Shown here: positions 17,582-33,845 of the stretch, one piece after another | Position numbering within the stretch: the stretch's first letter is position 1 | How the letters are laid out: every line of letters begins with the position of its first letter | Origin: Ruminococcus sp. | Lineage (GTDB): Bacteria; Bacillota; Clostridia; Oscillospirales; Ruminococcaceae | Direction: 5' to 3' | DNA length: 64,000 nucleotides | Assembly: GCA_017622925.1 (NCBI GenBank) | Contig: JAGAQC010000076.1 | Coordinates: 1 to 64,000, forward strand | Position numbers and translations under genes: made by a program | The notes under the pieces: model-generated | Seen by the model: only the letters and a program-made list of their open reading frames with translations | What the model was told of the DNA's origin: nothing | Databases searched by the model: none

Positions 17582-18724
17582 TTAATTGATTTTTTCCGTA
17601 TCGTTTCTTTCGACTTTTGAAACGCCCTCAAAATAAGTTTTGCTTACAGCTATAAATCCTCTGTAGTATGCCATATCGGGAGTTGCAATTTTCGGATTCT
17701 CCGTAGTTGTGTACACCGTGAGCAGATCGTTTGTCTTTTCGATCTTATCTATCGTCAGAACTTTATTTCCTGCTCCCACGCTGTTGTAAACTGCAATAAG
17801 AACATTATTTTCAAAGAAGCTTTCGTCAATTCCGTTCGGAACGAGCGACTGTACGTCATGAAAATCGCATTTGCATCCGTCATATTCGCACAATTCCGCA
17901 GTTTTGAGCAGCGTATGAAGCTCGGACATTGAAGCCGCCGTATAAACGCCGTTCTTAATCTTTTCCATGCCGTTGTTTCCTCTCATTGCTTCAACGCTCA
18001 TAACGGTATGATCGGGCTTGCTTTCCGAAAATTCCTTTCTCATAACGCATAGGTCGTATACGTCTATCACCTGATCTTCGCAAAGGTCGGCGTTTTTCCA
18101 ACAGGTAAGCTTATCCTCGCCGAGAAGCCATTTTTCCAGCATAACGAGGTCAGCTACGGTAAAATCGCCGTCGCCGTTCGCATCGCCTCTGACGGGAGGA
18201 GTGAATTCTTCCTCGCTTATTTCTGAAACGTTCATTTCTTCGTTTACCATATAATAGCCGTGATCTTTGAGTACATGGCTTTGTTCCCACTCCCAAGGCA
18301 TACCCTGAGAAATTGTTATCTCTACAGTTCCCGAAGAAACAGCTTCATAAACAATGATCGTGTGGCTTTTTGCTCCCGGTGGCAGCGGTTCGTCAGGTTT
18401 GATATTATACTCGAACGCTTTCTTTACCTCAGCCGTTCCGAGCTGTTCCATAACGACCTCTGCGCCTGTACTGTAGTTTATTTCGTCACAGTAAACTATG
18501 TATTTTCCGTGAATTGAGACCATTCCGTTTTTCTCGGTAAATTCGTTGAATTCCGTCATGGTCTCAGGCAACATTTCACGAAGCTTTTCTTCCGTTAAGC
18601 TTTCGGTTTCAGTCTCTGCCGAAATGCTTTCGGATTCCGCAAAGCTTGTGGAAATTACGGTACTTCCTCCAAACGCGCCGAATATTCCGGCAGCCGTAAG
18701 CAGCGATATGATTTTTTTGTTCAT
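17582..18724 (-). CDS. Secreted protein with an internal dockerin, function unknown
   Basis: 380 residues with an N-terminal signal peptide (MNKKIISLLTAAGIFGAFGG). An N-terminal domain (about 40-180) has no family I recognise. A complete type I dockerin lies in the middle (about 182-240: GDANGDGDFTVADLVMLEKW, ADLCEDQVIDVYDLCVMRK). A C-terminal domain (about 250-370) has FFENNVLIAVYNSVGAG and a YDGCKCDFHD loop, a layout that recalls small protease-inhibitor-like beta domains. Dockerins usually sit at the end, so the trailing domain is notable. It lies downstream of the sigma/anti-sigma pair with only the 162-bp repeat between, so read-through is possible. I see no convincing separate promoter. 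Confidence 0.7.
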   Translation of the reverse strand: MNKKIISLLTAAGIFGAFGGSTVISTSFAESESISAETETESLTEEKLREMLPETMTEFNEFTEKNGMVSIHGKYIVYCDEINYSTGAEVVMEQLGTAEVKKAFEYNIKPDEPLPPGAKSHTIIVYEAVSSGTVEITISQGMPWEWEQSHVLKDHGYYMVNEEMNVSEISEEEFTPPVRGDANGDGDFTVADLVMLEKWLLGEDKLTCWKNADLCEDQVIDVYDLCVMRKEFSESKPDHTVMSVEAMRGNNGMEKIKNGVYTAASMSELHTLLKTAELCEYDGCKCDFHDVQSLVPNGIDESFFENNVLIAVYNSVGAGNKVLTIDKIEKTNDLLTVYTTTENPKIATPDMAYYRGFIAVSKTYFEGVSKVERNDTEKIN

Positions 18725-18950: not shown

Positions 18951-20093
18951 TCAAAAGCATTCAGCCAGTTCCAACATTTCATCATAATACATTTGTAAGT
19001 CGAACATGAAAGATACATGGCAGCCGTCGTCCCACATCAACATTATATAATCGTATTGTTCGTCGGGCTGTAATCTGTCGTTTTCATAAAGAGCGGGTCT
19101 GCCGTTGATTTCAAAATATTCAAAATAATGCTTGAATTTAGGAGTCCAGCCTATCGAAAGCTCCTCATAATCATAGGTATAAACAAGGTATGTACGACCG
19201 CTTTCCTCCGACTTTATCTTCATAGAATGATTATAATCCGAATTGTCAGCATATATAGAAAATTTCTCGCTATCCATGCCGTGTATCTTTTTCTCCTCGG
19301 GAGCGTCGTGCGGCGGAACATAAATCAATTCATCGTAGTTTTCATAAATGTCCGTAATGTCGTTATGATAACTGCCCTTGTTGATCTGAAAATATCCTCC
19401 TTTATCAGGCGATACCGTAGTGGTAGGAATTTCTGTTGTCTGCTGCGATTCAATTTCCGTTGATACTGTTGTCTGTGATGATTCGGCTTCTGTCGTTTCA
19501 ATAACGTCTGTCTGTATCGGAGCTTCCGTCTGTTCGGAATATTCCTCCTCATCATATGTTTCAGATACTTCAACGTCTGATGCGGTTATATCAGGAACGT
19601 CCGTTTCCAACGCCGCAGTTGTAAGGACAGTATTATCGGCAGAAGTAACGTCGGAATACGATACGGCAGAGATCGGAACGTCTTTCTCCTTAGCGGACGT
19701 AGTCCGTTTTTCTTGTGACGATATGGGATTCTGTTCAATAATATCGGGCGGCTGCTCAATATTTTTTGAGGGGATAAACGTCATTTTTATAAGCAGAATG
19801 ACTGCCGCCGCGCATACTGCCGCTATAATTTTATTCATTGTGAAAATACGGAATACAGACTGTTTCCGCGCCCTTTCGGTTTCGGTAAATTCAAGTATAT
19901 CCCCTTCCACTGTCGTTTCGAGGTCAGCCTCGGATACGGTATTTTTTTTTAGCTCAAGGTATTTCCTACAGCTTGCTTCAAATACCTTATCCATATTCCA
20001 TTCGGCAGGATAATTTTCCGAAATTTTATCGGCTGACACATTATCAATGTCTTTCAGAAATGATTTTCTCAGCTTCACAGAATATCGCCTCAC
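18951..20093 (-). CDS. Membrane-anchored anti-sigma factor-like protein
   Basis: 380 residues starting at a GTG that overlaps the sigma factor stop by four bases (GTGA), so translation is coupled. The cytoplasmic N-terminus (about 1-88) would bind the sigma factor, and a single helix follows (about 89-108, IIAAVCAAAVILLI). Then comes a Ser/Thr/Glu-rich extracellular linker (about 120-220) and a compact C-terminal domain rich in Tyr and Asp. The pairing and topology are those of ECF anti-sigma factors. The extracellular domain does not match a carbohydrate-binding RsgI module that I recognise, so the signal is unknown. The neighbouring dockerin genes are possible targets. Confidence 0.7.
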   Translation of the reverse strand: MRRYSVKLRKSFLKDIDNVSADKISENYPAEWNMDKVFEASCRKYLELKKNTVSEADLETTVEGDILEFTETERARKQSVFRIFTMNKIIAAVCAAAVILLIKMTFIPSKNIEQPPDIIEQNPISSQEKRTTSAKEKDVPISAVSYSDVTSADNTVLTTAALETDVPDITASDVEVSETYDEEEYSEQTEAPIQTDVIETTEAESSQTTVSTEIESQQTTEIPTTTVSPDKGGYFQINKGSYHNDITDIYENYDELIYVPPHDAPEEKKIHGMDSEKFSIYADNSDYNHSMKIKSEESGRTYLVYTYDYEELSIGWTPKFKHYFEYFEINGRPALYENDRLQPDEQYDYIMLMWDDGCHVSFMFDLQMYYDEMLELAECF

Positions 20094-20641
20094 TTCAATG
20101 AAATGTCTTTTAAGAGTTCTCTTAATTTTTTCAAGGCACGGTTCAAACGTACTCTTACAGCTCCGGGAGTCATATTGAGATCCCTTGCTATGTCCTTTGA
20201 CTTGCGGTCATAATAGTATTTTTGTATTATCAAAGAGGCATCGGGTTCGCCAAGGGAACGTATTTTTTCGTAAATAAGCCTGTTGCGTTCCAGAGTTTCC
20301 GAGTCGGCAGCTATATCCGTATCATCGGGCAGATTCAGCAGTTCCCCGTCATCTGCTAATACGGTTTTCTCCGAACTCAGCTTACGGTATTTATCTATTG
20401 CCTTTCTTTTGGCTACAGTTCCGATGTATGCCTGCAAAGAACCACTATTTATCGTTGAAAAATTAAGAAAAACCTCGGCAAAAGTATCGCTGACAGCTTC
20501 CTCTGCGTCCTCTGCCGAACCGATCTTTCTTATTCTCCCCCATACTATTGTATATACATAATTCTGATATTGCTTGAAAAGTACTTTGAAACCGTCCCTT
20601 TGTGATTCTGCAATAAGCGCGCGCAGCTTCTCCTCGGTCAT
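20090..20641 (-). CDS. ECF-type RNA polymerase sigma factor
   Basis: This 183-residue sigma-70 family protein of the extracytoplasmic-function class contains only regions 2 and 4. Region 2 shows FKQYQNYVYTIV and DAEEAVSDTFAEVF, and region 4 shows IQKYYYDRKSKDIARDLNM followed by the helix-turn-helix TPGAVRVRLNRALKKL. It would direct polymerase to its own promoter class when released by the membrane partner encoded next. The start is an ATG after GAGGTGAAG. It faces away from the condensation-enzyme operon. Confidence 0.92.
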   Translation of the reverse strand: MTEEKLRALIAESQRDGFKVLFKQYQNYVYTIVWGRIRKIGSAEDAEEAVSDTFAEVFLNFSTINSGSLQAYIGTVAKRKAIDKYRKLSSEKTVLADDGELLNLPDDTDIAADSETLERNRLIYEKIRSLGEPDASLIIQKYYYDRKSKDIARDLNMTPGAVRVRLNRALKKLRELLKDISLK

Positions 20642-20713
20642 AACGGCTTCACCTCGTTTTAAAACTTACAGTCCGTTTTCCAAACGGGAAAAATTTTTCC
20701 TTTCACTATATAC

Positions 20714-20741
20714 TATCGCAGCAGAATTGAAAAGTGTTACA
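20714..20741 (-). promoter_or_regulatory. Candidate ECF-type autoregulatory promoter
   Basis: On the minus strand TGTAAC is followed about 17 bp later by CGATAG, a spacing and sequence type seen in ECF promoters, upstream of the sigma gene. One weak match only. Confidence 0.25.
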
Positions 20742-20866
20742 TGATAATAAAATATTTTCCCCCCTCTCCCCTGCCATATGATAATGATAACATAAATAAC
20801 TAAGAAGTTCAATACCGATCCACATTTTATTTTCTTGTTCCAAAAGTGCTTTTGTGCAATAAAGCA

Positions 20867-20895
20867 TTGACATTTTGACAAATTTATGTTATTAT
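20867..20895 (+). promoter_or_regulatory. Sigma-A promoter of the condensation/carrier/adenylation operon
   Basis: TTGACA, 17 bp, TATTAT. A second TTGACA starts at 20875. The predicted leader is about 155 nt (20902-21058); I see no known riboswitch in it. Confidence 0.65.
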
Positions 20896-21058
20896 AAAAT
20901 TGAAACATATACTTCAAGAAACGAAGGACATAATCTGCGGTTATATGCGATTTGCAATAGAGTCAAGTATAAACAGCAATTTTACATAACATCAGTTCAA
21001 TTTTATCATTCGGAGCTTTTCTCATATGAAAGAGTTCCGAGCAACCGGAGGTGTATCT

Positions 21059-22459
21059 ATGGAAAAAATCATCGGCGGCATCAAGCGTGAATGCTATCCT
21101 CTCACAGCAGCGCAAATGGTGCATATCTACACGCTTTCTTTAAGTCCGACCCACGAGATCGTGAATATCGGCACAGGACAATACCTGAAAACGGAACTTA
21201 ACATTTCGGTTCTTCGTGAGGCTTTGAATCGCGCTGTGGAACGCTGCGAATCTATGCGTATGCGTATCTGGAAGGACCCCGATACGGGCGAGCTTTTGCA
21301 GTATGTCATGCCCTATGAAAACAAGTATTTTGAGTATTACGACTTCTCTGCGCTGACAGAGGAAAAAGCCCATGCAATTCTTGACCGCTGGACTTCTCAG
21401 CCGTTCGATACCTTTGGCGGTGAACTTTCGCGAATCGTTATCGTGTCAATGCCCGACGGCTACAACGGCTATTATTTCAACGTTCACCACTGCTGTATGG
21501 ATTCATGCTCCGTTATTACTTTCACAAAAGACGTAATGGACATTTACTGTCATCTCATGTACGATCTGCCGTATCCTAAGCCGATGGCGTCCTATATAGA
21601 ATCGGTAAAGAAAGACCTTGAATACAACGGCAGCAAAAAGCAGCTTCGTGACGCTCAGTTCTGGCAGAATATCCTGAATCAGCCTGAACCGATGTATACC
21701 GATTATACAGGCTTTGGAAGAATGATACAGTGGCGTAAGGAGAACCCCGAACAGCGATGGGGCGTGCTTTCCACAAAAACAGGAGCAGGAAAAACCGTGA
21801 CCTATGATCTGAGCGTGGATTCCACCAACAAGATACTGCGTTTTTCCGAGGAATATAATATTCCCGTAAGCGTTGTGATACTCCATGCTATCAGAACGGT
21901 TCTTTCAAAGTTCAACAACAATGAGACAGATGTCACTATAAAAGACTTCGTAAGCCGACGTTCCACGCTTCAAAACAAACGCAGCGGCGGCGTCAGAATG
22001 CACTGCTTTGATTTGCGGACTATCATTGATCTCGACAAAACGGTACTGGAATCTATGGAGATCATCAATAAGGCTCAGCAGGAATTGTTCCTGCATGCCG
22101 ATTATCCCACATTGGGATTCTACGGTCAGCAGCGTCAGATATTCGGTTATCCGCAGGGCGGCTGCTATCAGAGCGTCAGCTTCACATATCAGAATGCGAC
22201 GCTTAAAAGCCTTGTACCGTATCTGAAAGACATTCCCGTCAAGAGCAGATGGTACAACAGCGGCAGACAGCCTCAGCCGCTTTATATAACCGCTATGCAC
22301 CGTTTCGGCGACGGCGGTCTGACGTTCCACTTCGGGTATCAGTCCGAGCTTGTTACGCCGCAGGAAATCGAGTTCCTGTATTACTTTACGGGACGAGTTC
22401 TGTTCCGCAGCATCGAAAACCCGAATAAAACTATTCAAGAGATAATTGATATGACCTGA
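21059..22459 (+). CDS. Stand-alone NRPS-type condensation enzyme
   Basis: This 466-residue protein spans a single condensation-domain fold and has no other module. The active-site motif is HHCCMDS, a variant of HHxxxDG that keeps both histidines and the aspartate. The N-terminal CYPLTAAQM matches the C1 core motif (LTxxQ), and a later KTVTYDLS-NKILRF segment resembles the second half of condensation domains. Such proteins form amide or ester bonds between a carrier-bound acyl group and an acceptor. The start is the ATG after GGAGGTG at 21047. A carrier protein gene follows after 14 bp and an adenylation enzyme after that, so this is the bond-forming member of a three-gene set. Substrates are unknown. 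Confidence 0.8.
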   Translation: MEKIIGGIKRECYPLTAAQMVHIYTLSLSPTHEIVNIGTGQYLKTELNISVLREALNRAVERCESMRMRIWKDPDTGELLQYVMPYENKYFEYYDFSALTEEKAHAILDRWTSQPFDTFGGELSRIVIVSMPDGYNGYYFNVHHCCMDSCSVITFTKDVMDIYCHLMYDLPYPKPMASYIESVKKDLEYNGSKKQLRDAQFWQNILNQPEPMYTDYTGFGRMIQWRKENPEQRWGVLSTKTGAGKTVTYDLSVDSTNKILRFSEEYNIPVSVVILHAIRTVLSKFNNNETDVTIKDFVSRRSTLQNKRSGGVRMHCFDLRTIIDLDKTVLESMEIINKAQQELFLHADYPTLGFYGQQRQIFGYPQGGCYQSVSFTYQNATLKSLVPYLKDIPVKSRWYNSGRQPQPLYITAMHRFGDGGLTFHFGYQSELVTPQEIEFLYYFTGRVLFRSIENPNKTIQEIIDMT

Positions 22460-22473
22460 TGGAGGTAAGAAAT

Positions 22474-22698
22474 ATGCTTGAAAAACTGATAGAACTGATA
22501 ACACAGTATATAGACATTGAACCCGATGAGATAAAAGAAGGATCGCGTTTTATGGAGGATATAGGCTTTAATTCCTACGACTTCATGTGTATGCTCGGCG
22601 ACTGCGAGGACGCTTTTGACGTTGAGATTGACGAGGCAGAAGCGGCAGGCAACAAGACTGTCGGCGCATTGCTTGCATATCTCGGAGGACTGAAATAA
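22474..22698 (+). CDS. Acyl/peptidyl carrier protein
   Basis: A 74-residue acidic four-helix carrier protein. GFNSYDF contains the serine expected to carry 4'-phosphopantetheine (consensus GxDS; here Asn replaces Asp). The ATG at 22474 has GGAGG 8 bp upstream; an earlier ATG overlapping the condensation gene stop is less well placed. The stop overlaps the next start by one base. It would carry the substrate loaded by the adenylation enzyme encoded next. No phosphopantetheinyl transferase gene is in the window. Confidence 0.9.
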   Translation: MLEKLIELITQYIDIEPDEIKEGSRFMEDIGFNSYDFMCMLGDCEDAFDVEIDEAEAAGNKTVGALLAYLGGLK

Positions 22699-24206
22699 TG
22701 GCTGAAATTGCAACATTAAAAGAACTCGTCTACCGCGCCGATGCGGTATTCGGGGACGAGCCTTTTGTACGGGAGTATCTGCATCGTGAACTGCGTGACA
22801 AGAGCTTCCGCACGTTCCGTCAGGACTGCGACTGCTTTGCTGTGTGGGTTCAGGAGCATTTTCCGAACGGCGTACACGCTGCCGTTATAGGCTCTACAAG
22901 CTACGAGTATCTTACGGCGTGGTTTGGTATCCAGTGCAGCGGAAATGTGACCGTACCGCTGGACAACGCAAATCCTGCGGAGAAGATAGCCGACGAGGTA
23001 AATCGCTCGGACAGTGAGATCGTCATTGTGGATAAGCGTCACGAGGGAGATATTGAGCAGTTCAGAAAACTCTGTCCGCAGGTGAAATATTTCATTCATC
23101 TTCATGAAAAGCAGGATAATATGCTCTGTCTCGCCGATATAATCAGCGAATACAGCGGAAAAGTCCCCGACAGCTCTCCAAAGGAAAACGACCTTGCGGC
23201 AATTCTTTTCACCTCGGGAACAACGGGACAAAGCAAGGGCGTTATGCTAAGCAACGGAAATCTTATAGATAACGCTACATGTGAACCCGATCGGAATTAT
23301 CGAGGTCAAAAGCGTATGACGGTTCTGCCGATACATCATGTGTTCTGCTTCACATGCGACGTTCTCTGCGCATTGTGGTACGGCAGGATACTTTGTGTAA
23401 ACGATTCCCTCATGCGTATCCCTAAGAATCTGAAAATATTTCAGCCTGACGATACTACATTCGTGCCGATGATAGCGGCTTCTATTCTGTCGAAAATGCA
23501 GCTTGCCGCAGAGAAAAATCCCGATAAAATTGCGATAGGCAAAGAAACGTTCGGCGAGAATTTCAGCGTTATCTATACGGGCGGAGCGTATCTGAGTCCC
23601 GAGATAATCAAGGGCTACGAGGAATTCGGTATCGACATTGCGCAAGGCTACGGAATGACGGAATGTTCACCGCGTATCTGCACAGGCGTTAAGGGCTGCC
23701 CTAAGCCCTCGTCCGTGGGCAGACGAGTTCCCGGCTGTGATATTCGCATTGTGGACGGCGAAATTTGCGTAAAGAGCCGCTCCGTTATGCAGGGATATTA
23801 CAAAAATCCCGAGGAGACCGCCAAAACGCTGACCGAGGACGGCTGGCTGAAAACAGGCGACCTCGGCTATGTCGATGACGACGGATACGTCTACATCACG
23901 GGCAGAAAAAAGAATCTTATCATTCTATCCAATGGCGAAAATGTTTCGCCGGAGGAAATTGAGAATCAGTTTGCCTGCTGCAAGCCCATAAAGGAGATCG
24001 TTGTTTATGAAAAGGACAACCTGATAACTGCGGAGGTATATCCGAATCCCGATTACGCGTCTGAAAATATTGAGGCTGAGATTCAGCAGAAAATTGACGA
24101 TGTAAATTCGGGTTCTCCGCCTGCAAAGCGTATTGCGAAACTGGTTATCAGGGATACCGAATTTCCTAAAACAGCTTCTAAAAAAATCATTCGCAGCTTG
24201 CTGTAA
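22698..24206 (+). CDS. AMP-forming adenylation enzyme (loading partner of the carrier protein)
   Basis: A 502-residue ANL-superfamily enzyme. Motifs in order: LFTSGTTGQSKGVMLS (A3), PIHHVFCF (A4 region), QGYGMTECSP (A5), GWLKTGDLG (A7), ITGRKKNLIILSNGENVSP (A8) and a C-terminal TASKKI with the catalytic lysine (A10). The A4 region looks more like fatty-acyl synthetases (HHVF) than amino-acid-selecting domains, so the substrate may be a carboxylic or fatty acid. It overlaps the carrier gene by one base. It most likely loads the carrier protein for the condensation enzyme. Confidence 0.85.
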   Translation: MAEIATLKELVYRADAVFGDEPFVREYLHRELRDKSFRTFRQDCDCFAVWVQEHFPNGVHAAVIGSTSYEYLTAWFGIQCSGNVTVPLDNANPAEKIADEVNRSDSEIVIVDKRHEGDIEQFRKLCPQVKYFIHLHEKQDNMLCLADIISEYSGKVPDSSPKENDLAAILFTSGTTGQSKGVMLSNGNLIDNATCEPDRNYRGQKRMTVLPIHHVFCFTCDVLCALWYGRILCVNDSLMRIPKNLKIFQPDDTTFVPMIAASILSKMQLAAEKNPDKIAIGKETFGENFSVIYTGGAYLSPEIIKGYEEFGIDIAQGYGMTECSPRICTGVKGCPKPSSVGRRVPGCDIRIVDGEICVKSRSVMQGYYKNPEETAKTLTEDGWLKTGDLGYVDDDGYVYITGRKKNLIILSNGENVSPEEIENQFACCKPIKEIVVYEKDNLITAEVYPNPDYASENIEAEIQQKIDDVNSGSPPAKRIAKLVIRDTEFPKTASKKIIRSLL

Positions 24207-24220
24207 TAGACCTCTAATAT

Positions 24221-24249
24221 AAACACCGCACGCTCTCTGTGCGGTGTTT
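24221..24249 (+). terminator. Terminator after the adenylation gene
   Basis: An 11-bp stem AAACACCGCAC with its complement and a 7-nt loop, followed by TGTTTAT. It separates the biosynthetic trio from the transporter genes and could be leaky. Confidence 0.7.
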
Positions 24250-24275
24250 GTTTATATTGATCAGCGGATATTTTC

Positions 24276-24313
24276 AGGATTTAAGGATTATTTAATAATT
24301 TCTGTGCTACAAT
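24276..24313 (+). promoter_or_regulatory. Possible activator-dependent promoter of the ABC transporter operon
   Basis: TACAAT (24308-24313) is a fair -10 box without a -35 box. Two AGGATT half-sites in direct repeat (24276-24291) occupy the -35 position, as expected where an OmpR-type regulator recruits polymerase. The operon's own response regulator is the natural candidate. Confidence 0.3.
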
Positions 24314-24343
24314 GTGAATACACCAAAGAAAGGCGGTAGGAAA

Positions 24344-26710
24344 ATGTACATAAACATTCTCAAAAAAGACCTGAAACGCAAGAAAACCATGAACGTGATA
24401 CTGCTTATGTTTATTATCCTTGCGGTAATGTTCGTTTCAAGCGGTCTGAACAACGTATTAACTGTAATGAACGGCACGGATTATTATATGGATAAAGCAG
24501 GCGTGGGAGACTATGCGCTCATCACAATGGGCAAAGATTCCACAGGACACGCCGCTCCCATTCTTGATAAGGCTGAATGTGTGAAAAGCTACAAGCTCGA
24601 AAACTCTATTTTCGGTTCGCAGAACAGTGTAAAAAGAACTGACGGAACAGACGTGGAAACAAGGAATGTTGCCCTGTTTCAATCAATTTCGGACGTAAAG
24701 CTGAACTTCTTTGATGTGGAAAACGCTCCCGTTACAGAAGTAAAGCAGGGCGAGGTCATGATAGCAGGAAAGTTCATACAGAAAAACGGTTTTGAGGTCG
24801 GCGATCATATCCTCATAAAGCTTGGCGATGTTCAGATGGAGCTGAAAATTGCAGGCAAGGTGAAAGACGCTTTTTTAGGCGGCGATATAATGGGCAATAC
24901 AAGATTTTTGCTGAATCAAAGGGACTATGACAAATTCCTGTCCGATGATATGATAAGAGCGCACTATCAGGGAGAGATAGCTTATATCGAAACCGATGAT
25001 GTAACGGCAATAAAATCCGTGATAGCAAATATACCGGGAGTTTTGTTCGACGGTACAAGAAGTATGCTTCAAACTGCCTATGTCATGGATATGCTCGTGG
25101 CGTTTATCGTGCTTATATTAAGCGTGTGCCTGATAGTCGTATCATTTGTTGTACTTCGTTTCTCTATCAACTTTACCATTTCCGAGGAATACAGAGAGAT
25201 CGGCGTTATGAAAGCTATCGGTCTGAAAAACCGCAAGATCAGGGGACTTTATATTGCCAAATATCTGATAATGGCGGTAGTCGGCGGAATTATCGGCTTT
25301 TTTGCAAGTATTCCCTTTGGCAATATGCTGCTTAAATCAGTAAGCGAAAATATGGTTCTCGGCAATAACGCAGGTCTGCTTATAAATATTGCAAGCACAG
25401 TCGGTACAATATTTATAATTCTTCTGTTCGCTTACGGCTGTACGGGCAAGGTGAAGAAGCTTACTCCGATTGACGCTATTCGTTCGGGACAGACAGGCGA
25501 ACGTTTCCGCAAAAAGAGCTTTTTCAGAATCGGTAAAACAAACGCTAAGCCTGCGTTCTATATGGCGGTAAACGACATTTTAAGCGCGCCCAGACGCTTT
25601 ATGACGGTTATTGTTTCATTCTTTATCTGCACTCTGTTTGTGCTGATACTGGTAAACACGGTCGCTACCATGAAAAGTTCCAATCTTATCACCACATTCG
25701 GTACGAAAAGCGACATCTACATAACAGATATTGACAGCGCAACAAAGCTTATGAGTGAGGGCGACCGCGAAAGCGTCGAGGATAAACTGAATGACATTGC
25801 CGATTCGATTTCGGAGAAAGGTATGCCTTGTGAATTAAGCCTTGATATTCAGTATAAATATAAAATTATTTCCAAAGGAAACAGCTTTTCTTTAAGCTGC
25901 TCCCAGAGCGTCAATATTCCTGCGGACAAGTACGAATATTACGAGGGTACATCGCCGCAGAATAAAAACGAAATTGCAATAACTCCGCAGGTTTCCGAAA
26001 TGCTTGACGCTGAGATCGGAGATACGGTAACGATAGACTTCGGCACGGAAAAAATCGACTGCATTATTACCGCATACTTTCAGACGATGAACCAAATGGG
26101 CGAGGTTATCCGTCTTAGCGATGAAGCCCCCACCGATATGAGCTTTGTTGCGAATTTCAGGCAGTATCAGGTCGATTTCACCGATTCCCCAACTGATAAA
26201 GAAATTGAAAACCGCAAGGAAAAGATAAAGGAGCTTTTCGATAATGCCGATGTAATGAACGCTGCGGAATACTGCATGGACTGCATATCGGTCGTTCCCA
26301 CTATGGAGGCTGTTCAGTATATGCTCCTCGCAATAACCATAATCGTTGTGATACTTGTTACGGTCTTGGTGGAACGCTCGTTTATCTCCGATGAACGCAG
26401 TCAGATCGCTCTACTGAAAGCTATCGGCTTCAAGAACGGCGCAATAATCAAATGGCATACGCTGCGTTTCGGCATAGCTGCGCTTGCGGCGGCGATTCTT
26501 GCGGCGGTAGCTTCCATACCCATGACTAACCTTTGCATTTCGCCTATTTTCGGAATGATGGGCGCAGTTGATATTGACTTCATGATCGACCCGTTAAAGG
26601 TATTCCTGCTCTATCCCCTGATTATTTTTGCCGTAACTGTCCTGACAGCGTGGCTTACCTCGCTTTACACCAAAACGATAAAAACTTCCGAAGCTGCTAA
26701 CATTGAATAA
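24344..26710 (+). CDS. ABC transporter permease, double FtsX type
   Basis: 788 residues with an N-terminal helix (MNVILLMFIILAVMFVSS), a large extracytoplasmic domain, an FtsX permease domain (about 255-390, EYREIGVMKAIGLKNRKI), a second helix and extracytoplasmic domain, and a second FtsX domain (about 655-780, DERSQIALLKAIGFKNGAI). Both permease domains are in one chain, as in MacB/LolC-like and peptide-resistance exporters. The ATG at 24344 follows AAAGGCGGT and removes a short unlikely extension. The matching ATPase follows after 12 bp. It probably exports the product of the upstream enzymes or confers resistance to it; that link is by position only. Confidence 0.88.
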   Translation: MYINILKKDLKRKKTMNVILLMFIILAVMFVSSGLNNVLTVMNGTDYYMDKAGVGDYALITMGKDSTGHAAPILDKAECVKSYKLENSIFGSQNSVKRTDGTDVETRNVALFQSISDVKLNFFDVENAPVTEVKQGEVMIAGKFIQKNGFEVGDHILIKLGDVQMELKIAGKVKDAFLGGDIMGNTRFLLNQRDYDKFLSDDMIRAHYQGEIAYIETDDVTAIKSVIANIPGVLFDGTRSMLQTAYVMDMLVAFIVLILSVCLIVVSFVVLRFSINFTISEEYREIGVMKAIGLKNRKIRGLYIAKYLIMAVVGGIIGFFASIPFGNMLLKSVSENMVLGNNAGLLINIASTVGTIFIILLFAYGCTGKVKKLTPIDAIRSGQTGERFRKKSFFRIGKTNAKPAFYMAVNDILSAPRRFMTVIVSFFICTLFVLILVNTVATMKSSNLITTFGTKSDIYITDIDSATKLMSEGDRESVEDKLNDIADSISEKGMPCELSLDIQYKYKIISKGNSFSLSCSQSVNIPADKYEYYEGTSPQNKNEIAITPQVSEMLDAEIGDTVTIDFGTEKIDCIITAYFQTMNQMGEVIRLSDEAPTDMSFVANFRQYQVDFTDSPTDKEIENRKEKIKELFDNADVMNAAEYCMDCISVVPTMEAVQYMLLAITIIVVILVTVLVERSFISDERSQIALLKAIGFKNGAIIKWHTLRFGIAALAAAILAAVASIPMTNLCISPIFGMMGAVDIDFMIDPLKVFLLYPLIIFAVTVLTAWLTSLYTKTIKTSEAANIE

Positions 26711-26722
26711 AGGAGAATTTAT

Positions 26723-27490
26723 ATGAACAAAGTATTAATAGCAAACGACCTCTGCAAAACGTACATTGTCAACAAGCGTCAGAACAACGTGCTGAAAAAT
26801 GTGAATTTCAGCATCGACGAGGGCGAAATGGTCGCTGTAATGGGTCCGTCGGGTTCGGGCAAGTCTACCCTGCTGTACGCCGTTTCGGGCATGGACAGCA
26901 TTACCGCAGGCGAAGTGCAGTTCTGCGGCAGGAATCTCTCTGAATTAAAGGAAAAAGAGCTTGCCGACCTCAGACTTGACGAAATGGGGTTCATCTTCCA
27001 GCAGATGTATATGCTGAAAAATCTCACCGTTCTTGACAATATTATTCTTCCTGCATGTCAGTCCGAAAAAAGAAAGGAAACTCGCAAAGAGACCGTACAA
27101 AGGGGCGAAACGCTTATGCGTAAGCTCGGCATTATAGATATTGCGGATAACGATATTACCGAGGTCTCGGGCGGTCAGCTCCAGCGAGCCTGCATCTGCC
27201 GAAGTATGATAAACGACCCGAAGATAATTTTTGCAGACGAGCCTACAGGCGCGCTGAACCGCACCTCCTCCAACGAGGTCATGGAGGAGCTTACCAAGCT
27301 GAACAACGAGGGTACTACGATAATGCTTGTTACTCACGATGTGAAAGTCGCCGCAAAATGCACAAGAGTGCTTTACATAGTTGACGGAAACATAAAAGGA
27401 GAGTATAATATAAGTAAGTACAAAAATGCTTCCCAAATGCGGGAGCGTGAACGCGCTTTAAATAACTGGTTAATGGAAATGGGTTGGTAA
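26723..27490 (+). CDS. ABC transporter ATPase (MacB/LolD-like)
   Basis: 255 residues with Walker A GPSGSGKSTLL, Q-loop FIFQQMYML, signature VSGGQLQRA, Walker B IIFADEPTGAL and a switch histidine (VTHD). This is the standard ATPase partner of FtsX-type permeases. The start has AAGGAG. A response regulator starts 2 bp after its stop, so transporter and two-component system form one operon. Confidence 0.93.
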   Translation: MNKVLIANDLCKTYIVNKRQNNVLKNVNFSIDEGEMVAVMGPSGSGKSTLLYAVSGMDSITAGEVQFCGRNLSELKEKELADLRLDEMGFIFQQMYMLKNLTVLDNIILPACQSEKRKETRKETVQRGETLMRKLGIIDIADNDITEVSGGQLQRACICRSMINDPKIIFADEPTGALNRTSSNEVMEELTKLNNEGTTIMLVTHDVKVAAKCTRVLYIVDGNIKGEYNISKYKNASQMRERERALNNWLMEMGW

Positions 27491-27491
27491 T

Positions 27492-28154
27492 ATGACCGAT
27501 ATTCTGATTGTTGAAGATAATAAAGAGCTTGCAGACCTGCTGTGTGATTTTCTTCGCGCCGAAAATTACACGGTATCGACTGCGGAAAGCGGCGAAAAAG
27601 CCTTGTCCCTGTACGAAAAATACGGGGCAAGGCTTATCGTGCTGGATATTATGCTGCCGGGAGTGGACGGATTTTCCGTGTGCGGTAAGATACGTGAACA
27701 AAGCAATACTCCGATACTTATTGTAAGCGCAAAAACGGATAAGGATAACAAGCTTAACGGGCTTATTCTCGGAGCTGACGACTACATAGAAAAACCCTAT
27801 GATATTGATATTCTCCTTGCTAAAATAGCAGGTATTTTCAAACGCCGATACGCTCTCGATGAAATTACCGAGGGCGATCTGACGCTTAATAAAGCGAACA
27901 AGACCGCCTGTAAAAACGGCGTTCCGATAAATATGACGGCTAAGGAGTTTGAGCTGCTCCGCCTGCTTATCGAAAATAAGGGGAAAACCCTTAACAAGGA
28001 ATATATTTTCAACACGATATGGGGAAGCGACAGTTTCTCTGAAATTCAGACTCTTACGGTGCATATAAAATGGCTGCGGCAGAAAATCGAGGACGACCCC
28101 AAGAAACCGCAGCATATCCAAACAGTATGGGGCGTGGGGTATAAGTTTGTATGA
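27492..28154 (+). CDS. OmpR/PhoB-family response regulator
   Basis: 220 residues. The receiver domain has the acidic pair in LIVEDNKEL, phospho-acceptor Asp in IVLDIMLPG, and the lysine in DDYIEKP. The winged-helix domain shows MTAKEFELLRLL and TLTVHIKWLRQKI. It is translationally coupled to the kinase (4-bp overlap). It probably controls the transporter genes just upstream, and possibly the biosynthetic trio. Confidence 0.93.
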   Translation: MTDILIVEDNKELADLLCDFLRAENYTVSTAESGEKALSLYEKYGARLIVLDIMLPGVDGFSVCGKIREQSNTPILIVSAKTDKDNKLNGLILGADDYIEKPYDIDILLAKIAGIFKRRYALDEITEGDLTLNKANKTACKNGVPINMTAKEFELLRLLIENKGKTLNKEYIFNTIWGSDSFSEIQTLTVHIKWLRQKIEDDPKKPQHIQTVWGVGYKFV

Positions 28155-29392
28155 AAGCTTTTAACAGAATTTTTATCGGTATGCTGCTGCTTATCGCTAT
28201 AATTTTTGCAGGGGCAAATCTGCTGCTCCTGAATATTGATAATATCGGCAGCGGCAGACCGTATCGCGTTGAGATAGAACGGCTTTCAAGACTTATCGAA
28301 ACGGACGCTGCTACAGCCGCCGCCGCTCTTTCAGACTGCGAGTATATAACGGGGATCGTAAAGCTTTCGGACTGTCCCGACAGCTTTTATAAAGCCGACA
28401 GCGACTATGCAATACGTGAGATAAACGGCGAGCTTTATCGGTTCGACTATACCATGTCACGCAAAAACAACGGCGATGTTGTTATCATAGTTAATTTGAT
28501 TCTGACCGTCATGTCGGCGGTAATTGTCGGTATACTGGTCTATGTCCGCGCGAAAGTTCTTACTCCTTTTGAAAGGCTTACCAACGTTCCCTACGAACTC
28601 TCAAAGGGCAATCTCACCACGCCTGTCAAGGAAAACAAAAACCGATTTTTCGGCAAATTTATTTGGGGCGTTGACCTCCTGCGTGAAAATATTGAGGAGC
28701 AGAAAAAACGCGAGCTTGAACTTCAAAAGGAAAAGAAAACCCTGCTGCTGTCTTTGTCTCACGATATAAAAACTCCGCTGTCCGCCATAAAGCTGTACTC
28801 AAAGGCTCTTTCAAAGGGGCTGTATCCCGATAAGGCGAAGCAGCTCGAAATTGCCGAAAGCATAAACGACAAGGCTGACGAAATAGAGGGGTATATCTCC
28901 CAGATCATCAAGGCGTCAGGCGAGGATTTTTTAAGGCTTGAAGTAAATAACGGCGAATTTTATCTCTCGGAGCTTATAAACCGCATTTCGGCTTATTACA
29001 GCGAAAAATTACGGCTCGTACATATTCGTTTCAGCGTTGGCAAATACGGGAACTGCCTTATCAAGGGCGACATCGAACGCAGCGTTGAGGTACTCCAGAA
29101 CATCATTGAAAATGCTATAAAATACGGCGACGGAAAGCTGATAGAAATAATGTTCAGCGAGGAGGACTGGTGTCAGCTTATAACCGTGAAAAACAGCGGA
29201 AATACGCTCCCCGATTCGGAAGTTATCCACATTTTCGAGAGCTTTTGGCGCGGTTCAAATGCCGATAACCAAAAGGGCAGCGGTCTTGGACTTTACATCT
29301 GCCGTCAGCTTATGAGAAAAATGAACGGCGATGTTTTTGCGGAAACCGAAAAGGGTCATATGAACGTTACTTGCGTTTTTCAGAAAGTCTAA
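28151..29392 (+). CDS. Sensor histidine kinase
   Basis: 413 residues. Helix 1 (about 8-28), an extracytoplasmic sensor of about 85 residues, helix 2 (about 115-137), a HAMP linker, a HisKA domain with SLSHDIKTPLSAIKLYSKAL (His is the phospho-acceptor), and a HATPase domain with IIENAIKYG (N box) and GSGLGLYICRQL (G2 box). The sizeable external loop separates it from the intramembrane-sensing BceS type and suggests direct ligand sensing. Its stop overlaps, on opposite strands, the stop of the convergent epimerase gene. Confidence 0.92.
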   Translation: MKAFNRIFIGMLLLIAIIFAGANLLLLNIDNIGSGRPYRVEIERLSRLIETDAATAAAALSDCEYITGIVKLSDCPDSFYKADSDYAIREINGELYRFDYTMSRKNNGDVVIIVNLILTVMSAVIVGILVYVRAKVLTPFERLTNVPYELSKGNLTTPVKENKNRFFGKFIWGVDLLRENIEEQKKRELELQKEKKTLLLSLSHDIKTPLSAIKLYSKALSKGLYPDKAKQLEIAESINDKADEIEGYISQIIKASGEDFLRLEVNNGEFYLSELINRISAYYSEKLRLVHIRFSVGKYGNCLIKGDIERSVEVLQNIIENAIKYGDGKLIEIMFSEEDWCQLITVKNSGNTLPDSEVIHIFESFWRGSNADNQKGSGLGLYICRQLMRKMNGDVFAETEKGHMNVTCVFQKV

Positions 29393-30405
29393 TTAAAAAT
29401 CTCTTTTTTGGTTTTCTCGATAGCGGCAATCACCTTATCGCACCAAAGGTCAAATTCGGGGTCGCTTATCTGATATTCGGGGTGTCTGAGAATGTATTCT
29501 ATAGTTCTTCTTATTCCCTCGTCAAATCGAACCTCCGCCTTAAAATCGGGAACTGCCCTTTTCAGCTTTTCGTTGTCAAAAACGACTGAGTTCGCCTTGT
29601 CGCCTATAAGACTGCCTTTGAAGTCATAGTCGCTCACCGAACACAGAAAATCGGAAGAAACATGATACGGGACAAGTTCAACTCCCAATGCGTTTGCGAT
29701 AGAACCATATATCTGATTCCATGTTAGCGTTTCGTCCGAAGTTATCTGGTACGCTTCGCCTATTGCATGGATATTTCCCATAAGTCCGACAAAGCCCTTT
29801 GCAAAATCGCTGTTGTGGGTCATAGTCCATAAGGACGCGCCGTCGCCGTGGATAATTACGGGCTTTCCCTCTATCATACGCTTTATTACCTGCCAACTTC
29901 CGTTTCTGCCGTGTACTCCGAGCGGAACGGAACGCTCGTCATACGTATGGCTGGGTCGAACTATCGTTATCGGAAAACCGTTTTCACGATACATCTTCAT
30001 AAGAAATTCTTCGCAGGCTATCTTGTTTCTCGAATACTCCCAGTAAGGATTCGCAAGCGTTGTCCTCTCGCTTATTATATAGTCGGAAACGGGCTTATGA
30101 TATGCGGACGCCGAGCTGATATACATAAACTGTTTCGTTCTGCCGTTAAACAGTCTGTAATCACGCTCCAACTGTTCGGGAACAAATCCGATAAATTCGC
30201 ATACGGCGTCAAATTTCATTCCGTCAAGCTTTTTTGCCGCCGCAGCTTCATCGTTAATATCCGCATTTATTACATTAACGCCCTGCGGAAGTTCCCTTTT
30301 CTGCGTTCCGCGGTTAAGAAGATAAACCTCCCATTCCTTTTCTGCAAGCAGCTTTGTTACAGCCATACTGATAGTTCCCGTTCCGCCGATAAGTAATGCT
30401 TTCAT
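29389..30405 (-). CDS. NAD-dependent epimerase/dehydratase-like protein (extended SDR)
   Basis: 338 residues with the Rossmann motif LLIGGTGTISMAVTKLL, a YISSASAYH strand and a YWEYSRNK segment at the position of the YxxxK catalytic pair. It resembles atypical SDRs that act on nucleotide sugars or as isoflavone-reductase-like proteins. It follows the alcohol dehydrogenase gene by 13 bp and is likely co-transcribed. The substrate cannot be given. Confidence 0.75.
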   Translation of the reverse strand: MKALLIGGTGTISMAVTKLLAEKEWEVYLLNRGTQKRELPQGVNVINADINDEAAAAKKLDGMKFDAVCEFIGFVPEQLERDYRLFNGRTKQFMYISSASAYHKPVSDYIISERTTLANPYWEYSRNKIACEEFLMKMYRENGFPITIVRPSHTYDERSVPLGVHGRNGSWQVIKRMIEGKPVIIHGDGASLWTMTHNSDFAKGFVGLMGNIHAIGEAYQITSDETLTWNQIYGSIANALGVELVPYHVSSDFLCSVSDYDFKGSLIGDKANSVVFDNEKLKRAVPDFKAEVRFDEGIRRTIEYILRHPEYQISDPEFDLWCDKVIAAIEKTKKEIFN

Positions 30406-30418
30406 ATCCTTATTCCTT

Positions 30419-31600
30419 TCAAACTTCCGCTTTAGCCGCTATTTTATATATATTTGAAATATCCTCGGACGAAAGCGATACGAAGCCTCCTGTTCTGCCG
30501 TCGCCAAGTCCGAATTTCCGTACAAGCTCGGGAATGTCTTCCTCCCTTGCGCCAAGCTGCTCAAAGTTTATCGGCATACCTATCTCCGAAAGGAACTTCC
30601 TGAATCTGCGGATACCCTTTAACGCCGTTTCCTCGGGGTTCTCAAAATTCATTTCGCAGCCCCATATGCGAACCGCCGTCTGCGCAAATCGCATTACGTT
30701 ATGCTTGTAAACGTATTCCATCCACGCAGGCATTATTACCGCAAGTCCTGCGCCGTGCGCGCAATCGTAAAGTCCCGAAAGCTCATGCTCGATAGCGTGG
30801 CTGTTCCAATCCTGACTTCTGCCTACTCCCACAATATCGTTATGGGCGACTGTTCCTGCCCACATTATATTCGCTCTTGCCTGATAATTATGAGGGTCTG
30901 CTATGACACGGGGCGTTTCCTTTATCATTGTTAGCAGAACCGCTTCGCACAAACGGTCAGTTATCTCGACCTCCGTTGTGTTCGTAAAATAGCGTTCAAA
31001 TACATGCGCCATTATATCCGTTGCTCCGCAGGCTGTCTGATACGGACTGAGCGTTTCGGTCAGCTCGGGGTCAAGAATTGAAAACCTCGGACGCAAGAGG
31101 TCGGAGCTTGTGTCGCGTTTCAGCATTCCGTTTTCCTTGGTAATTACCGACGCTCCCGAACCCTCGCTGCCTGCCGCTGCAATAGTCAGGACTGTTCCCA
31201 ACGGAAGCGCCTTTTCAACTACGGCTTTTCCGCTGTAAAGCTCCCAAAAATCACCGTCGTACATAACTCCTGCCGCAATTGCCTTTGCCGAATCTATACA
31301 CGAACCTCCGCCGACCGACAGTATAAAGTCCACCTGTTCTCTGCGGCAAAGCTCTATCCCCTCGTACACCTTTGTGTCGCGCGGATTCGGCTGTACCCCT
31401 CCGAGAAGCACGCAGCTTATGTTCTCGGCTTCAAGGGACGCTTTCACTCGCTCGATAAGTCCCGAACGTACTGCCGAGCCTGTACCGTAATGCACGAGTA
31501 CCTTTGTTCCTCCGTACTTTTTTACGTATTTTCCGCACTCGCTCTCGCTGCTCTTTCCAAATATAAATTCCGTCGGACTGTAAAACTGAAAGTTCTCCAT
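30419..31600 (-). CDS. Iron-containing alcohol dehydrogenase (BdhA/YugJ-like)
   Basis: 393 residues of the Fe-ADH family. Features are SVGGGSCIDSAKAIA (NAD(P)-binding), the metal histidines in ATDIMAHVFERYF, and the AHGAGLAVIMPAWM stretch near the third histidine. It interconverts aldehydes and alcohols; the closest type is the NADPH-dependent butanol dehydrogenase YugJ. It has its own promoter at 31649 and an AAGGAG ribosome-binding site. It probably serves fermentative redox balance. Confidence 0.88.
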   Translation of the reverse strand: MENFQFYSPTEFIFGKSSESECGKYVKKYGGTKVLVHYGTGSAVRSGLIERVKASLEAENISCVLLGGVQPNPRDTKVYEGIELCRREQVDFILSVGGGSCIDSAKAIAAGVMYDGDFWELYSGKAVVEKALPLGTVLTIAAAGSEGSGASVITKENGMLKRDTSSDLLRPRFSILDPELTETLSPYQTACGATDIMAHVFERYFTNTTEVEITDRLCEAVLLTMIKETPRVIADPHNYQARANIMWAGTVAHNDIVGVGRSQDWNSHAIEHELSGLYDCAHGAGLAVIMPAWMEYVYKHNVMRFAQTAVRIWGCEMNFENPEETALKGIRRFRKFLSEIGMPINFEQLGAREEDIPELVRKFGLGDGRTGGFVSLSSEDISNIYKIAAKAEV

Positions 31601-32558: not shown

Positions 32559-32586
32559 TGTAGGGGACGGCGCCCTCGACGTCCCG
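32559..32586 (+). repeat. 28-bp GC-rich repeat, copy 1
   Basis: It starts TGTAGGGGACGGCGCC. The same 28 bases occur at 36187-36214 and, inverted, at 36316-36343. Here it stands alone, just after the DUF305 gene. Confidence 0.8.
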
Positions 32587-32590
32587 TTTC

Positions 32591-32720
32591 CTGTGAATTG
32601 CGGCTACGGGGACGCATATCCCGTACATAAGAATACGGTCGGCAATGGGTGCAGCGACACGCTGCCGCAAGCTCGCTAATATTTTTAAACTCAAATTTAT
32701 CTCCGCGCCTGTTGCAATTA
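32591..32720 (-). repeat. 130-bp dispersed repeat, left inverted copy
   Basis: This is the near-complete reverse complement of 33591-33720; differences are scattered single bases. The two copies face each other across the permease gene 32801-33481. Short ORFs inside it are not genes. Confidence 0.85.
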
Positions 32721-32754
32721 TTAAGCCGAGCCGTTAGCAATCGCTGTCTTTTAA

Positions 32755-32800
32755 AGCTAAAAGCTAACAGCTAACAGCTAAAGGCTAATAGCTAACGGCT
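32755..32800 (+). repeat. Heptanucleotide tandem array (GCTAANN)
   Basis: Six or more 7-bp units of the form GCTAACA/GCTAAAG/GCTAATA/GCTAACG end exactly at the stop codon of the permease gene. The inverse form is AGCCNTT, seen in other arrays of this region. Confidence 0.85.
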
Positions 32801-33481
32801 CTACTGTCCTCCTATGGCGTTCGCTGCGAATCTATTCGGCATGGTAAATCTGTCGCTTTTCTTCCACCAAGCGTTTACAACAACAAGAGAGATACCTACA
32901 CTGACAGCATATACGCCTACCGTTATTACTGCGGACGCTCCCAATGACAGCTCCGATATTCCGTCTATAATTCCCGATTTTTGAATAACTTTCGGAATGA
33001 ACAAAAAAACAAAATAGGGAATAGCAAAGCACCATGTCAGCTTTTTCTTTCCGTAGAACGCTGCTGAAAAAATCAACAGAGAGCTGCCTACAGAATCAAT
33101 TATAAGCACATATGAAAGTCCCGTGACACCTAAATTGACTGCGGCGACTGCGGCAAAAACAATATCATATATCAGCGTCATTGCAAGTCCCGTTACTATG
33201 GGCGCAGCCGTGTAAAGAGCTTTTCCGCAGCTACATGACGTATAAAACTTATTCTGATATATCTTCAAATTGCCTATCATTGCCATTAAGAAAAATCCGA
33301 TTTTTCCCATTTGTATTGCGCCGAGCATGGACGAATGATCCTTGCTTCCCACAGGCTCGGGAGATATGATAAGTAATGCCAGCATTGCTCCCGAAAATAG
33401 AATTGTAAAGCCTATTATAAACGGATTTGCTGCCGCTTTTAAATATAGCTTCATTGCTCTTAAAAAAATATTTTTATTCAT
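32801..33481 (-). CDS. Polytopic membrane protein, probable ABC permease subunit
   Basis: 226 residues with about six helices, no family motif I can name, and an ending (SDRFTMPNRFAANAIGGQ) of mixed charge. It lies downstream of, and co-directional with, the GntR-ATPase-membrane protein operon, so a second permease subunit is likely. It is separated from that operon by 364 bp of repeats and is enclosed by an inverted pair of 130-bp repeats, as if the repeats had inserted around it. Start ATG with AAAGGAGAG. Confidence 0.6.
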   Translation of the reverse strand: MNKNIFLRAMKLYLKAAANPFIIGFTILFSGAMLALLIISPEPVGSKDHSSMLGAIQMGKIGFFLMAMIGNLKIYQNKFYTSCSCGKALYTAAPIVTGLAMTLIYDIVFAAVAAVNLGVTGLSYVLIIDSVGSSLLIFSAAFYGKKKLTWCFAIPYFVFLFIPKVIQKSGIIDGISELSLGASAVITVGVYAVSVGISLVVVNAWWKKSDRFTMPNRFAANAIGGQ

Positions 33482-33504
33482 TTTTCTCTCCTTTATTATA
33501 TGAT

Positions 33505-33539
33505 AGCCTTTAGCTGTTAGCCATTAGCCGTTAGCCATT
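33505..33539 (+). repeat. Heptanucleotide tandem array (AGCCNTT x5)
   Basis: Five perfect 7-bp units: AGCCTTT, AGCTGTT, AGCCATT, AGCCGTT, AGCCATT. The following GGTAGATGAATTT also follows the array at 40223. Confidence 0.88.
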
Positions 33540-33590
33540 GGTAGATGAATTTAGTGCGGCGGCTCGCCCTCTTATGTCATTAAAGTTTCA

Positions 33591-33720
33591 AAATTGCAAC
33601 AGTCGCGGAAAAAATTTGAGTTTAAAAATATTAGTGAGCTTGCGGCAGCGTGTCGCTGCACCCATTGCCGACCGTATTCTTATGAACGGGATATGTGTCC
33701 CCGTAGCCGCAATTCTCAGG
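33591..33720 (+). repeat. 130-bp dispersed repeat, right inverted copy
   Basis: Inverse of 32591-32720. The core reads GTGTCGCTGCACCCATTGCC and so on to GTCCCCGTAGCCGCAAT. With the next copy it fills the gap between the permease and the membrane-protein gene; nothing else is visible in 33482-33845. Confidence 0.85.
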
Positions 33721-33740
33721 GAAAGGCAAATAACAAAAGA

Positions 33741-33818
33741 AGCGTGTCGCTGCACCCATTGCCGACCGTATTCTTATGAACGTGATATGTGTCCCCGTAG
33801 CCGCAATACGCAGGGAAA
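33741..33818 (+). repeat. 130-bp dispersed repeat, partial third copy
   Basis: It repeats the second half of 33591-33720 in the same orientation (about 78 bp) with few changes. Confidence 0.82.
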
Positions 33819-33845
33819 TGCAAATACGACACGCCGACACGCTGC

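What the first reader, a model, noticed from the sequence alone, without database searches (positions are those of the whole stretch)
20867..29392. Minimal stand-alone condensation/carrier/adenylation system with exporter and two-component control
Seen: seven co-directional genes encoding a single condensation-domain enzyme (HHCCMDS), a 74-aa carrier protein, an adenylation enzyme, an FtsX-type exporter with its ATPase, a response regulator and a histidine kinase. The first three overlap or nearly touch; so do the last three. Known: NRPS logic needs exactly these three activities to activate, hold and condense a carboxylic acid. Inference: this is a one-bond natural-product pathway, for example an N-acyl amino acid, amine or lipid-like amide. 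The adenylation enzyme looks more fatty-acyl-like than amino-acid-like. No phosphopantetheinyl transferase or second carrier is present, so the acceptor is probably a free small molecule.
Basis: partly seen in the sequence, partly recalled or inferred. Interest (0 to 1): 0.78.

Follow-up and report, generated by a model that had tools for sequence, protein, structure and literature searches.

The report
Fatty acid amide three-gene operon
A bacterium related to gut Ruminococcus carries a three-gene operon of a kind recently shown, in other gut bacteria, to join fatty acids to small amines; the exporter and sensor genes beside it look like a separate unit.

Summary
The seven genes are real, but they form two units. 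The first three (condensation enzyme C, carrier T, acyl-activating enzyme A; 21062-24206) belong to the known "CTA" fatty acid amide operons of gut Clostridia. The window's C has one match at E <= 1e-5 among solved structures: PDB 12KH, OaaC of Coprococcus eutactus (E 1.2e-88, 33% identity), whose motif class and 17-residue insertion it shares. In 86 of 87 distinct fetched relatives (window included) with a full C gene, T and A follow on the same strand. Likely chemistry: A activates a fatty acid, T carries it, C passes it to a free amine. The amine is unknown and no activity was tested.

The permease, ATPase, response regulator and kinase are not part of it: a terminator-like hairpin lies between, DNA similarity to the nearest relatives stops there, and the four genes recur together elsewhere without the trio. 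An Sfp-like phosphopantetheinyl transferase lies on another contig.

Less expected: a divergent "HH" branch, mostly in MAGs named Ruminococcus or Clostridia, that seems to move between genera (C 95% identical where two housekeeping proteins are 81% and 69%). New member of a known kind.

The parts
20867..20895 (+). sigma-70-like promoter, TTGACA-17-TATTAT with TG before the second hexamer
   Evidence: 11 of 12 matches (30 sites found in the region, shuffles 16.3 +/- 3.8, so consensus alone is weak); a 78-base stretch 20821-20896 is 82% identical in L054
21062..22459 (+). C: stand-alone condensation enzyme, 465 aa, OaaC-like
   Evidence: (PDB 12KH, E 1.2e-88)
21485..21505 (+). catalytic motif HHCCMDS (residues 142-148 of C)
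   Evidence: second His and Asp are in 87 of 87 aligned relatives (window included)
22474..22698 (+). T: acyl carrier protein, 74 aa; candidate pantetheine serine in GFNSY, codon 22573-22575
22698..24206 (+). A: acyl-activating (ANL) enzyme, 502 aa, fatty-acyl-ligase-like
   Evidence: core motif TSGTTG.SKG, LP.HH and Lys496 invariant in 19 of 19 aligned
24219..24251 (+). terminator-like hairpin (14 pairs) that closes the three-gene unit
   Evidence: 13 sites found, shuffles 8.9 +/- 2.9; this one has the longest stem; its T run is modest; within the stretch shared with L054 (20986-24260)
24344..26710 (+). FtsX-type permease: neighbour, separate unit, not part of the system
26723..27490 (+). ABC ATPase of the separate unit
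27492..28154 (+). OmpR-type response regulator of the separate unit
28151..29392 (+). histidine kinase of the separate unit

Best explanation
21062-24206 is a CTA-type fatty acid amide operon, a relative of oaaC-oaaACP-oaaA. Steps, all inferred by homology for this window: a phosphopantetheinyl transferase encoded elsewhere arms T on Ser34; A adenylates a free fatty acid and loads it on T as a thioester; C, with the second His of HHCCMDS in its active site, lets a free small amine attack the thioester and releases an N-acyl amide. No second carrier or thioesterase is needed. The fatty acid probably comes from outside the cell. The likeliest use to the bacterium is to turn toxic free fatty acids into harmless amides, with possible effects on the host; which amine is used is unknown. 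The permease/ATPase/regulator/kinase block is an independent unit.
For: One PDB sequence at E <= 1e-5, 12KH, E 1.2e-88 over residues 6-463; 12KH is OaaC, shown to make fatty acid amides in vitro. 33% identity over 461 residues. Motif HHCCMDS fits the published (D/H)HxxxDS. The OaaC insertion stretch holds 31 residues in the window (33 median in 87) against 15 in each of 9 C domains taken as outgroup. 36 columns chosen as typical of the 87 relatives, without OaaC: OaaC has 32. C-T-A order on one strand in 86 of 87 distinct full C loci, the same order as published. A scores best against a long-chain fatty acid-CoA ligase model (222 bits, under its curated cut-off) and less against amino acid adenylation (128 bits). 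Sfp-like PPTase in the genome. Some relatives carry lipid-type neighbours: an SCP2 lipid-transfer protein (L045), alpha/beta hydrolases, a PPTase.
Against: Identity to the one characterised member that I could compare is only 33%, so acyl and amine choice may differ. In the tree the exact node that unites OaaC's group with the window's group has low support (0.365), because a few remote C proteins compete; only the wider clade is firm (0.971). The outgroup is 9 C domains from related genomes, not a full set of C-domain classes. No structure model was made. L047 has the C gene without T and A. The SCP2, hydrolase and PPTase neighbours are absent beside the window's own trio.
Confidence: 0.87

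Rival explanations
1. Same machinery, other acceptor: C transfers the acyl group to a free amino acid, peptide, sugar or alcohol, giving an N-acyl amino acid or an ester rather than a fatty acid amine amide.
For: The window lies in an 'HH' branch (52 leaves, support 0.994) apart from the 'DH' OaaC branch; 33% identity leaves room for another acceptor.
Against: The published members tested prefer small amines and exclude amino acids (introduction of PMC13142362, citing Chang et al.); most columns typical of the group are shared with OaaC (32 of 36).
Confidence: 0.09
2. One reading: the permease/ATPase exports the product and the response regulator/kinase controls it.
For: Same strand, 108 bases between A's stop and the permease ORF.
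Against: Terminator-like hairpin between. DNA similarity to L054, L055 and L056 ends at 24260, 24199 and 24190. A permease relative of more than 150 bits was found in the window alone among the 87 loci examined. Among the 13 genomes other than its own that the listed results show with both a C relative and a permease relative, they are on different contigs in 12 and over 1.4 Mb apart in one. All four genes stand together in 9 of 12 permease loci examined, with no C, T or A in any of the 12. The permease is in 36 of 60 genomes of the genus, C in 16 of 60.
Confidence: 0.02
3. A is only an acyl-CoA synthetase and C/T are decayed or do something else.
For: A's nearest solved relatives are CoA ligases and luciferases.
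Against: Catalytic residues of all three are intact and conserved; the three genes travel together. OaaC gave no product with oleoyl-CoA, so a carrier step is expected.
Confidence: 0.02

Closest known systems
OaaA-OaaACP-OaaC, oleoyl aminovaleric acid cluster of Coprococcus eutactus (PMC13142362; structure 12KH)
   Same: Three free-standing proteins, stand-alone C with (D/H)HxxxDS, shared 17-residue insertion, carrier between C and A in relatives, fatty-acyl-like A.
   Different: C only 33% identical; HH instead of DH at the motif start; window falls in another, well-supported branch; acceptor unknown.
CTA operon of Blautia wexlerae and other Lachnospiraceae (PMC13060934)
   Same: Order C-T-A, operon, patchy across species and strains.
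   Different: That survey of 7,781 isolate genomes reports the operon in 36 species, Lachnospiraceae throughout, at a 70% identity cut-off. The loci here are mostly titled Ruminococcus (29 of 51) or Clostridia/Clostridiales (17 of 51), none Lachnospiraceae (a search that finds close relatives). Sequence comparison with the Blautia proteins was not made.
Vibriobactin VibE/VibB/VibH (recalled, no call beyond a mention of VibH in a figure legend)
   Same: Stand-alone C that passes a carrier-bound acid to a free amine.
   Different: Aryl acid, siderophore pathway, not recovered by sequence search at E <= 1e-5.
FtsX-type permease + ATPase + OmpR-type regulator + kinase modules of Firmicutes
   Same: The window's second unit is one of these.
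   Different: Not linked to the trio elsewhere; no family of known substrate reached its cut-off.

Membership tests
Fatty acid amide (CTA / FAA) operon | Free-standing C, T and A genes in that order on one strand | tested here: met
   window; 86 of 87 distinct loci with a full C gene, window included; 9 of the 97 loci examined were set aside before that count (short, cut off or remote C)
Fatty acid amide (CTA / FAA) operon | C motif (D/H)HxxxDS, second His and Asp near-invariant | tested here: met
   HHCCMDS; in 87 aligned: H 87, D 87, first residue H 52 / D 33 / Q 1 / Y 1, last residue S 74 / A 13; published rule
Fatty acid amide (CTA / FAA) operon | C homologous to OaaC with its 17-residue insertion | tested here: met
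Fatty acid amide (CTA / FAA) operon | C belongs to the FAA clade, apart from PCP-dependent C domains | tested here: inconclusive
   wide clade with OaaC, 91 leaves, support 0.971, apart from 9 outgroup C domains, but it also holds 3 remote C proteins; exact node 0.365. Starter and other C classes were not in the tree
Fatty acid amide (CTA / FAA) operon | Carrier serine that can be pantetheinylated, and a PPTase in the cell | tested here: met
   GFNSY in T; Sfp-like ORF of 186 aa at G000:C26:118-676 minus strand (Pfam ACPS 3.5e-19). Modification itself not testable
Fatty acid amide (CTA / FAA) operon | A activates a fatty acid and loads T | not testable with these tools
   sequence only: best model is a fatty acid-CoA ligase, under its cut-off
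Fatty acid amide (CTA / FAA) operon | Product is an N-acyl amide of a small amine | not testable with these tools
   needs enzymes and LC-MS
Fatty acid amide (CTA / FAA) operon | C forms the homodimer that blocks the carrier site | not tested
Multimodular NRPS | Several modules or fused domains, second carrier | tested here: not met
   each protein is single-domain; the two Condensation matches in the held genome are the same gene on redundant contigs

The most novel reading that the evidence does not exclude
The 'HH' branch is a self-contained, promoter-to-terminator cassette that passes between genera of herbivore-gut, fibre-degrading Ruminococcus-like bacteria and protects them from toxic free fatty acids by turning these into amides with an amine not yet reported for this family, thereby also supplying amide lipids to ruminant and rabbit hosts.
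Probability: 0.3. Interest if true: 0.6.

Novelty: new member of a known kind. Interest (0 to 1): 0.36.

Why it matters
Fatty acid amides made by gut bacteria are reported to act on host receptors and, in Blautia, to relieve fatty acid toxicity (PMC13142362, PMC13060934). A divergent branch in Ruminococcus-like bacteria of the rumen and rabbit gut would extend this chemistry to fibre digesters whose growth is said to be inhibited by unsaturated fatty acids (PMC7990791, passages), and makes a simple question testable: do carriers of the trio tolerate dietary fat better. For annotation, it also shows that a neighbouring exporter and two-component pair should not be counted as part of such a cluster.

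Tried and rejected
Rejected: the seven-gene system (see rivals); absence of a PPTase as evidence (one lies on contig C26); two gene copies (contigs C46 and C55 are the same stretch). An RNA regulator in 20000-30500: no Rfam match at gathering scores. A direct paper on rumen fatty acid amides or on Ruminococcus CTA operons: none found with the terms (0 papers; 3, listing seen; 434 with 3 of 5 terms, 10 listed; 7, listing seen); the key paper, Chang et al. 2021, is not held and is known here through PMC13142362 and PMC13060934 and from recall. First tree rooting used outgroup names that were not in the tree, so one search's grouping was redone. Regex counts of the C and A motifs caught wrong stretches; the column-based counts and the alignment replace them. 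The 36-row alignment A1 was made for a structure model that could not be run.
Full report
What is there. C is a lone condensation domain, T a lone carrier protein, A a lone AMP-forming acyl-activating enzyme; then a permease, an ATPase, a response regulator and a kinase. A promoter-like site lies at 20867-20895 and a 14-pair terminator-like hairpin at 24219-24251, just after A. Such pattern hits are common in shuffled sequence too (30 against 16.3 promoter-like, 13 against 8.9 terminator-like), so they count only together with the comparisons below. The region occurs twice in the assembly, on contigs C46 and C55; I take that as redundancy, so the two Condensation matches are one gene.

What it is. 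Among all PDB sequences, C has one match at E <= 1e-5: 12KH, 465 aa, E 1.2e-88. The data-availability section of PMC13142362 gives 12KH as OaaC of Coprococcus eutactus. I read that preprint's abstract, introduction, results, discussion, the first of two parts of its methods, figure legends and data statement. OaaC, with OaaA and OaaACP, makes fatty acid amides in vitro: A loads a fatty acid on the carrier, C joins it to a free amine. Free-standing A, T and C, the (D/H)HxxxDS motif and a 17-residue insertion mark the group. A second preprint, PMC13060934 (sections 6 and 7 and passages), calls the cluster the CTA operon, reports it in 36 species, Lachnospiraceae throughout, out of 7,781 isolate genomes at a 70% cut-off, links it to acyl ethanolamines and oleoyl dopamine in culture, and reports that amines rescue Blautia from fatty acid toxicity. 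Both rest on Chang et al. 2021, which is not held.

Tests of membership. The window's C is 33% identical to OaaC over 461 residues. I examined 97 loci (window, 17 from the family survey, 51 named contigs, 28 from the class and genus surveys). Nine were set aside before counting: L049, L050, L051, L052, L157, L158 (remote C, score under 300), L067 (C split into two reading frames), L103, L104 (C cut short). Of the 88 left, one repeats another (L055 = L036). Of the 87 distinct loci, 86 have T and then A downstream on the same strand; L047 has neither. Not every hit was fetched with flanks: for instance G486, G504, G537 and G584 were not. In an alignment of the 87, the second His and the Asp of the motif are present in 87; the first position is H in 52, D in 33, Q in 1, Y in 1; the last is S in 74 and A in 13; OaaC reads DHRLMDS. 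Across the stretch of the OaaC insertion the window has 31 residues and the relatives a median of 33, against 15 in each of nine C domains of related genomes used as outgroup. Of 36 columns typical of the 87 and rare in the outgroup, OaaC, which was not used to choose them, has 32 and the window 35. In a FastTree tree the 87, OaaC and three remote C proteins form a clade with support 0.971 apart from the nine outgroup domains; OaaC sits with six others (0.996), the window in an 'HH' group of 52 (0.994) inside a group of 80 (1.0); the node that would join just the OaaC group and the group of 80 has support 0.365.

The A enzyme. Its best NCBIfam model is a long-chain fatty acid-CoA ligase (222 bits), with amino acid adenylation at 128 bits, both under their curated cut-offs. 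In 19 aligned relatives the P-loop, an LP.HH stretch and Lys496 are invariant. From my knowledge of the family, the HH stands where amino acid adenylation domains have the Asp that holds the alpha-amino group, which suits a fatty acid. T ranks nearest to fatty acid synthesis carrier proteins with serine in GFNSY.

PPTase. The held genome (2.5 Mb, 87.8% complete) has one ACPS-family hit, an ORF of 186 aa on contig C26, nearer to HetI and AusB than to AcpS, that is Sfp-like. Four of 68 loci also have such a gene beside the trio: L038, L045, L101, L102 (Pfam checked for L038 and L045).

The other four genes. DNA similarity with the nearest relatives covers 20986-24260 (L054), 21046-24199 (L055) and 21047-24190 in two pieces (L056), that is the trio with, at most, its terminator. 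Among the 87 loci, a permease relative over 150 bits is in the window alone; weaker or scattered ABC, regulator or permease hits occur near a few others, such as L100, L143 and L162. The permease is in 14 of 148 genomes of the family survey and 36 of 60 of the genus survey at E <= 1e-60. In 13 genomes other than its own that show both, the trio's C and the permease are on different contigs in 12 and more than 1.4 Mb apart in G113. In 12 permease loci fetched, all four genes stand together in 9; L195 and L197 reach a contig end, L199 shows permease and ATPase only; no C, T or A is found in the 12. So this is an independent module.

Spread. C relatives occur in 24 of 148 genomes of the family at E <= 1e-3, 15 of these (own included) with a separate gene of 457-528 aa, the rest mostly within large NRPS frames; in 16 of 60 of the genus; in 35 of 391 of the class at E <= 1e-20, 20 of these (own included) as a separate gene of 416-505 aa at 29% identity or more. 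A scan of named genome contigs, which finds close relatives only, gave 51 loci: 29 titled Ruminococcus, 17 Clostridia or Clostridiales bacterium, 3 Oscillospiraceae, 1 Clostridium, 1 Alistipes; several titles name cattle, sheep, deer or buffalo rumen, others 'Lapin'. Transfer between genera is likely: in G126, of another genus, C is 95% identical while TyrS on the same contig is 81% and FtsH 69%; in G135, of the same genus, C is 41% while TyrS is 87% and FtsH 80%; in G569 C is 70% while TyrS is 98% over 277 residues. This rests on two housekeeping proteins in 13 genomes.

Neighbours in relatives. Upstream of C an alpha/beta hydrolase in L039-L046, with a TetR-type regulator beside it in four; a MarR-type regulator upstream in 11; another alpha/beta hydrolase downstream in 8; a small SCP2 lipid-transfer protein after A in L045 (Pfam 4e-15) and its relatives in L039 and L044. 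They fit a lipid substrate and control by a small ligand, but none stands beside the window's trio.

Use to the cell. Detoxification of free fatty acids is the use best supported by others' data: amines rescue B. wexlerae from oleic and linoleic acid, and linolenic acid is described as toxic to R. albus and R. flavefaciens (PMC7990791, passages citing Maia et al. 2007; the same abstract also reports early increases of these species with added fatty acids). For this window it is inference. Signalling to the host is possible but untested.

Verdict. It is an ordinary member of a recently described and still little-known kind, with an unexplored branch and a transfer signal that make it moderately interesting.

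Noticed in passing
window 14805-17333 (minus strand): 842-aa fusion of a xylose-isomerase-like TIM barrel (PF01261) with an AMP-binding acyl ligase (PF00501). In a family survey, 34 of 100 genomes matched at E <= 1e-100, some over nearly the whole length (for example 83% in G019), many over the ligase half alone.
   Followed up: partly
window 35958-36684 and 32584-33826: Inverted repeats: 117-nt arms 35958-36074 / 36568-36684 (94% complementary) rich in GTGCCAAAA, beside a 569-aa ORF (36680-38389 minus) and tRNA-Thr 38721-38796; 115-nt arms 32584-32698 / 33612-33726. Possibly a small mobile element.
   Followed up: partly
G000 contigs C46 and C55: The window is held twice in the assembly; the genome's copy counts are inflated here.
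   Followed up: yes
window 2622-5363, 11897-14482, 17582-18724 (minus strand): Secreted proteins with dockerin-like ends (read by eye, not checked with a model), which suggests a cellulosome-type fibre degrader.
   Followed up: no
window 7121-8365: Putative metal-handling GTPase with long runs of His/Asp/Glu and repeated EHCCCHDH.
   Followed up: no
L038 12010-12654, L096, L100 12172-12816: 214-aa membrane protein of unknown family starting a few bases after A; no Pfam match, weak NCBIfam MAGa3780 hit in L038.
   Followed up: partly
L089, L090, L092, L094: Rabbit-gut relatives with a gap of about 560-615 bases between C and A, T lying inside it.
   Followed up: no
L067 and L047: C gene split in two reading frames in L067; C gene without T and A in L047: possible decay or sequencing error.
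   Followed up: no
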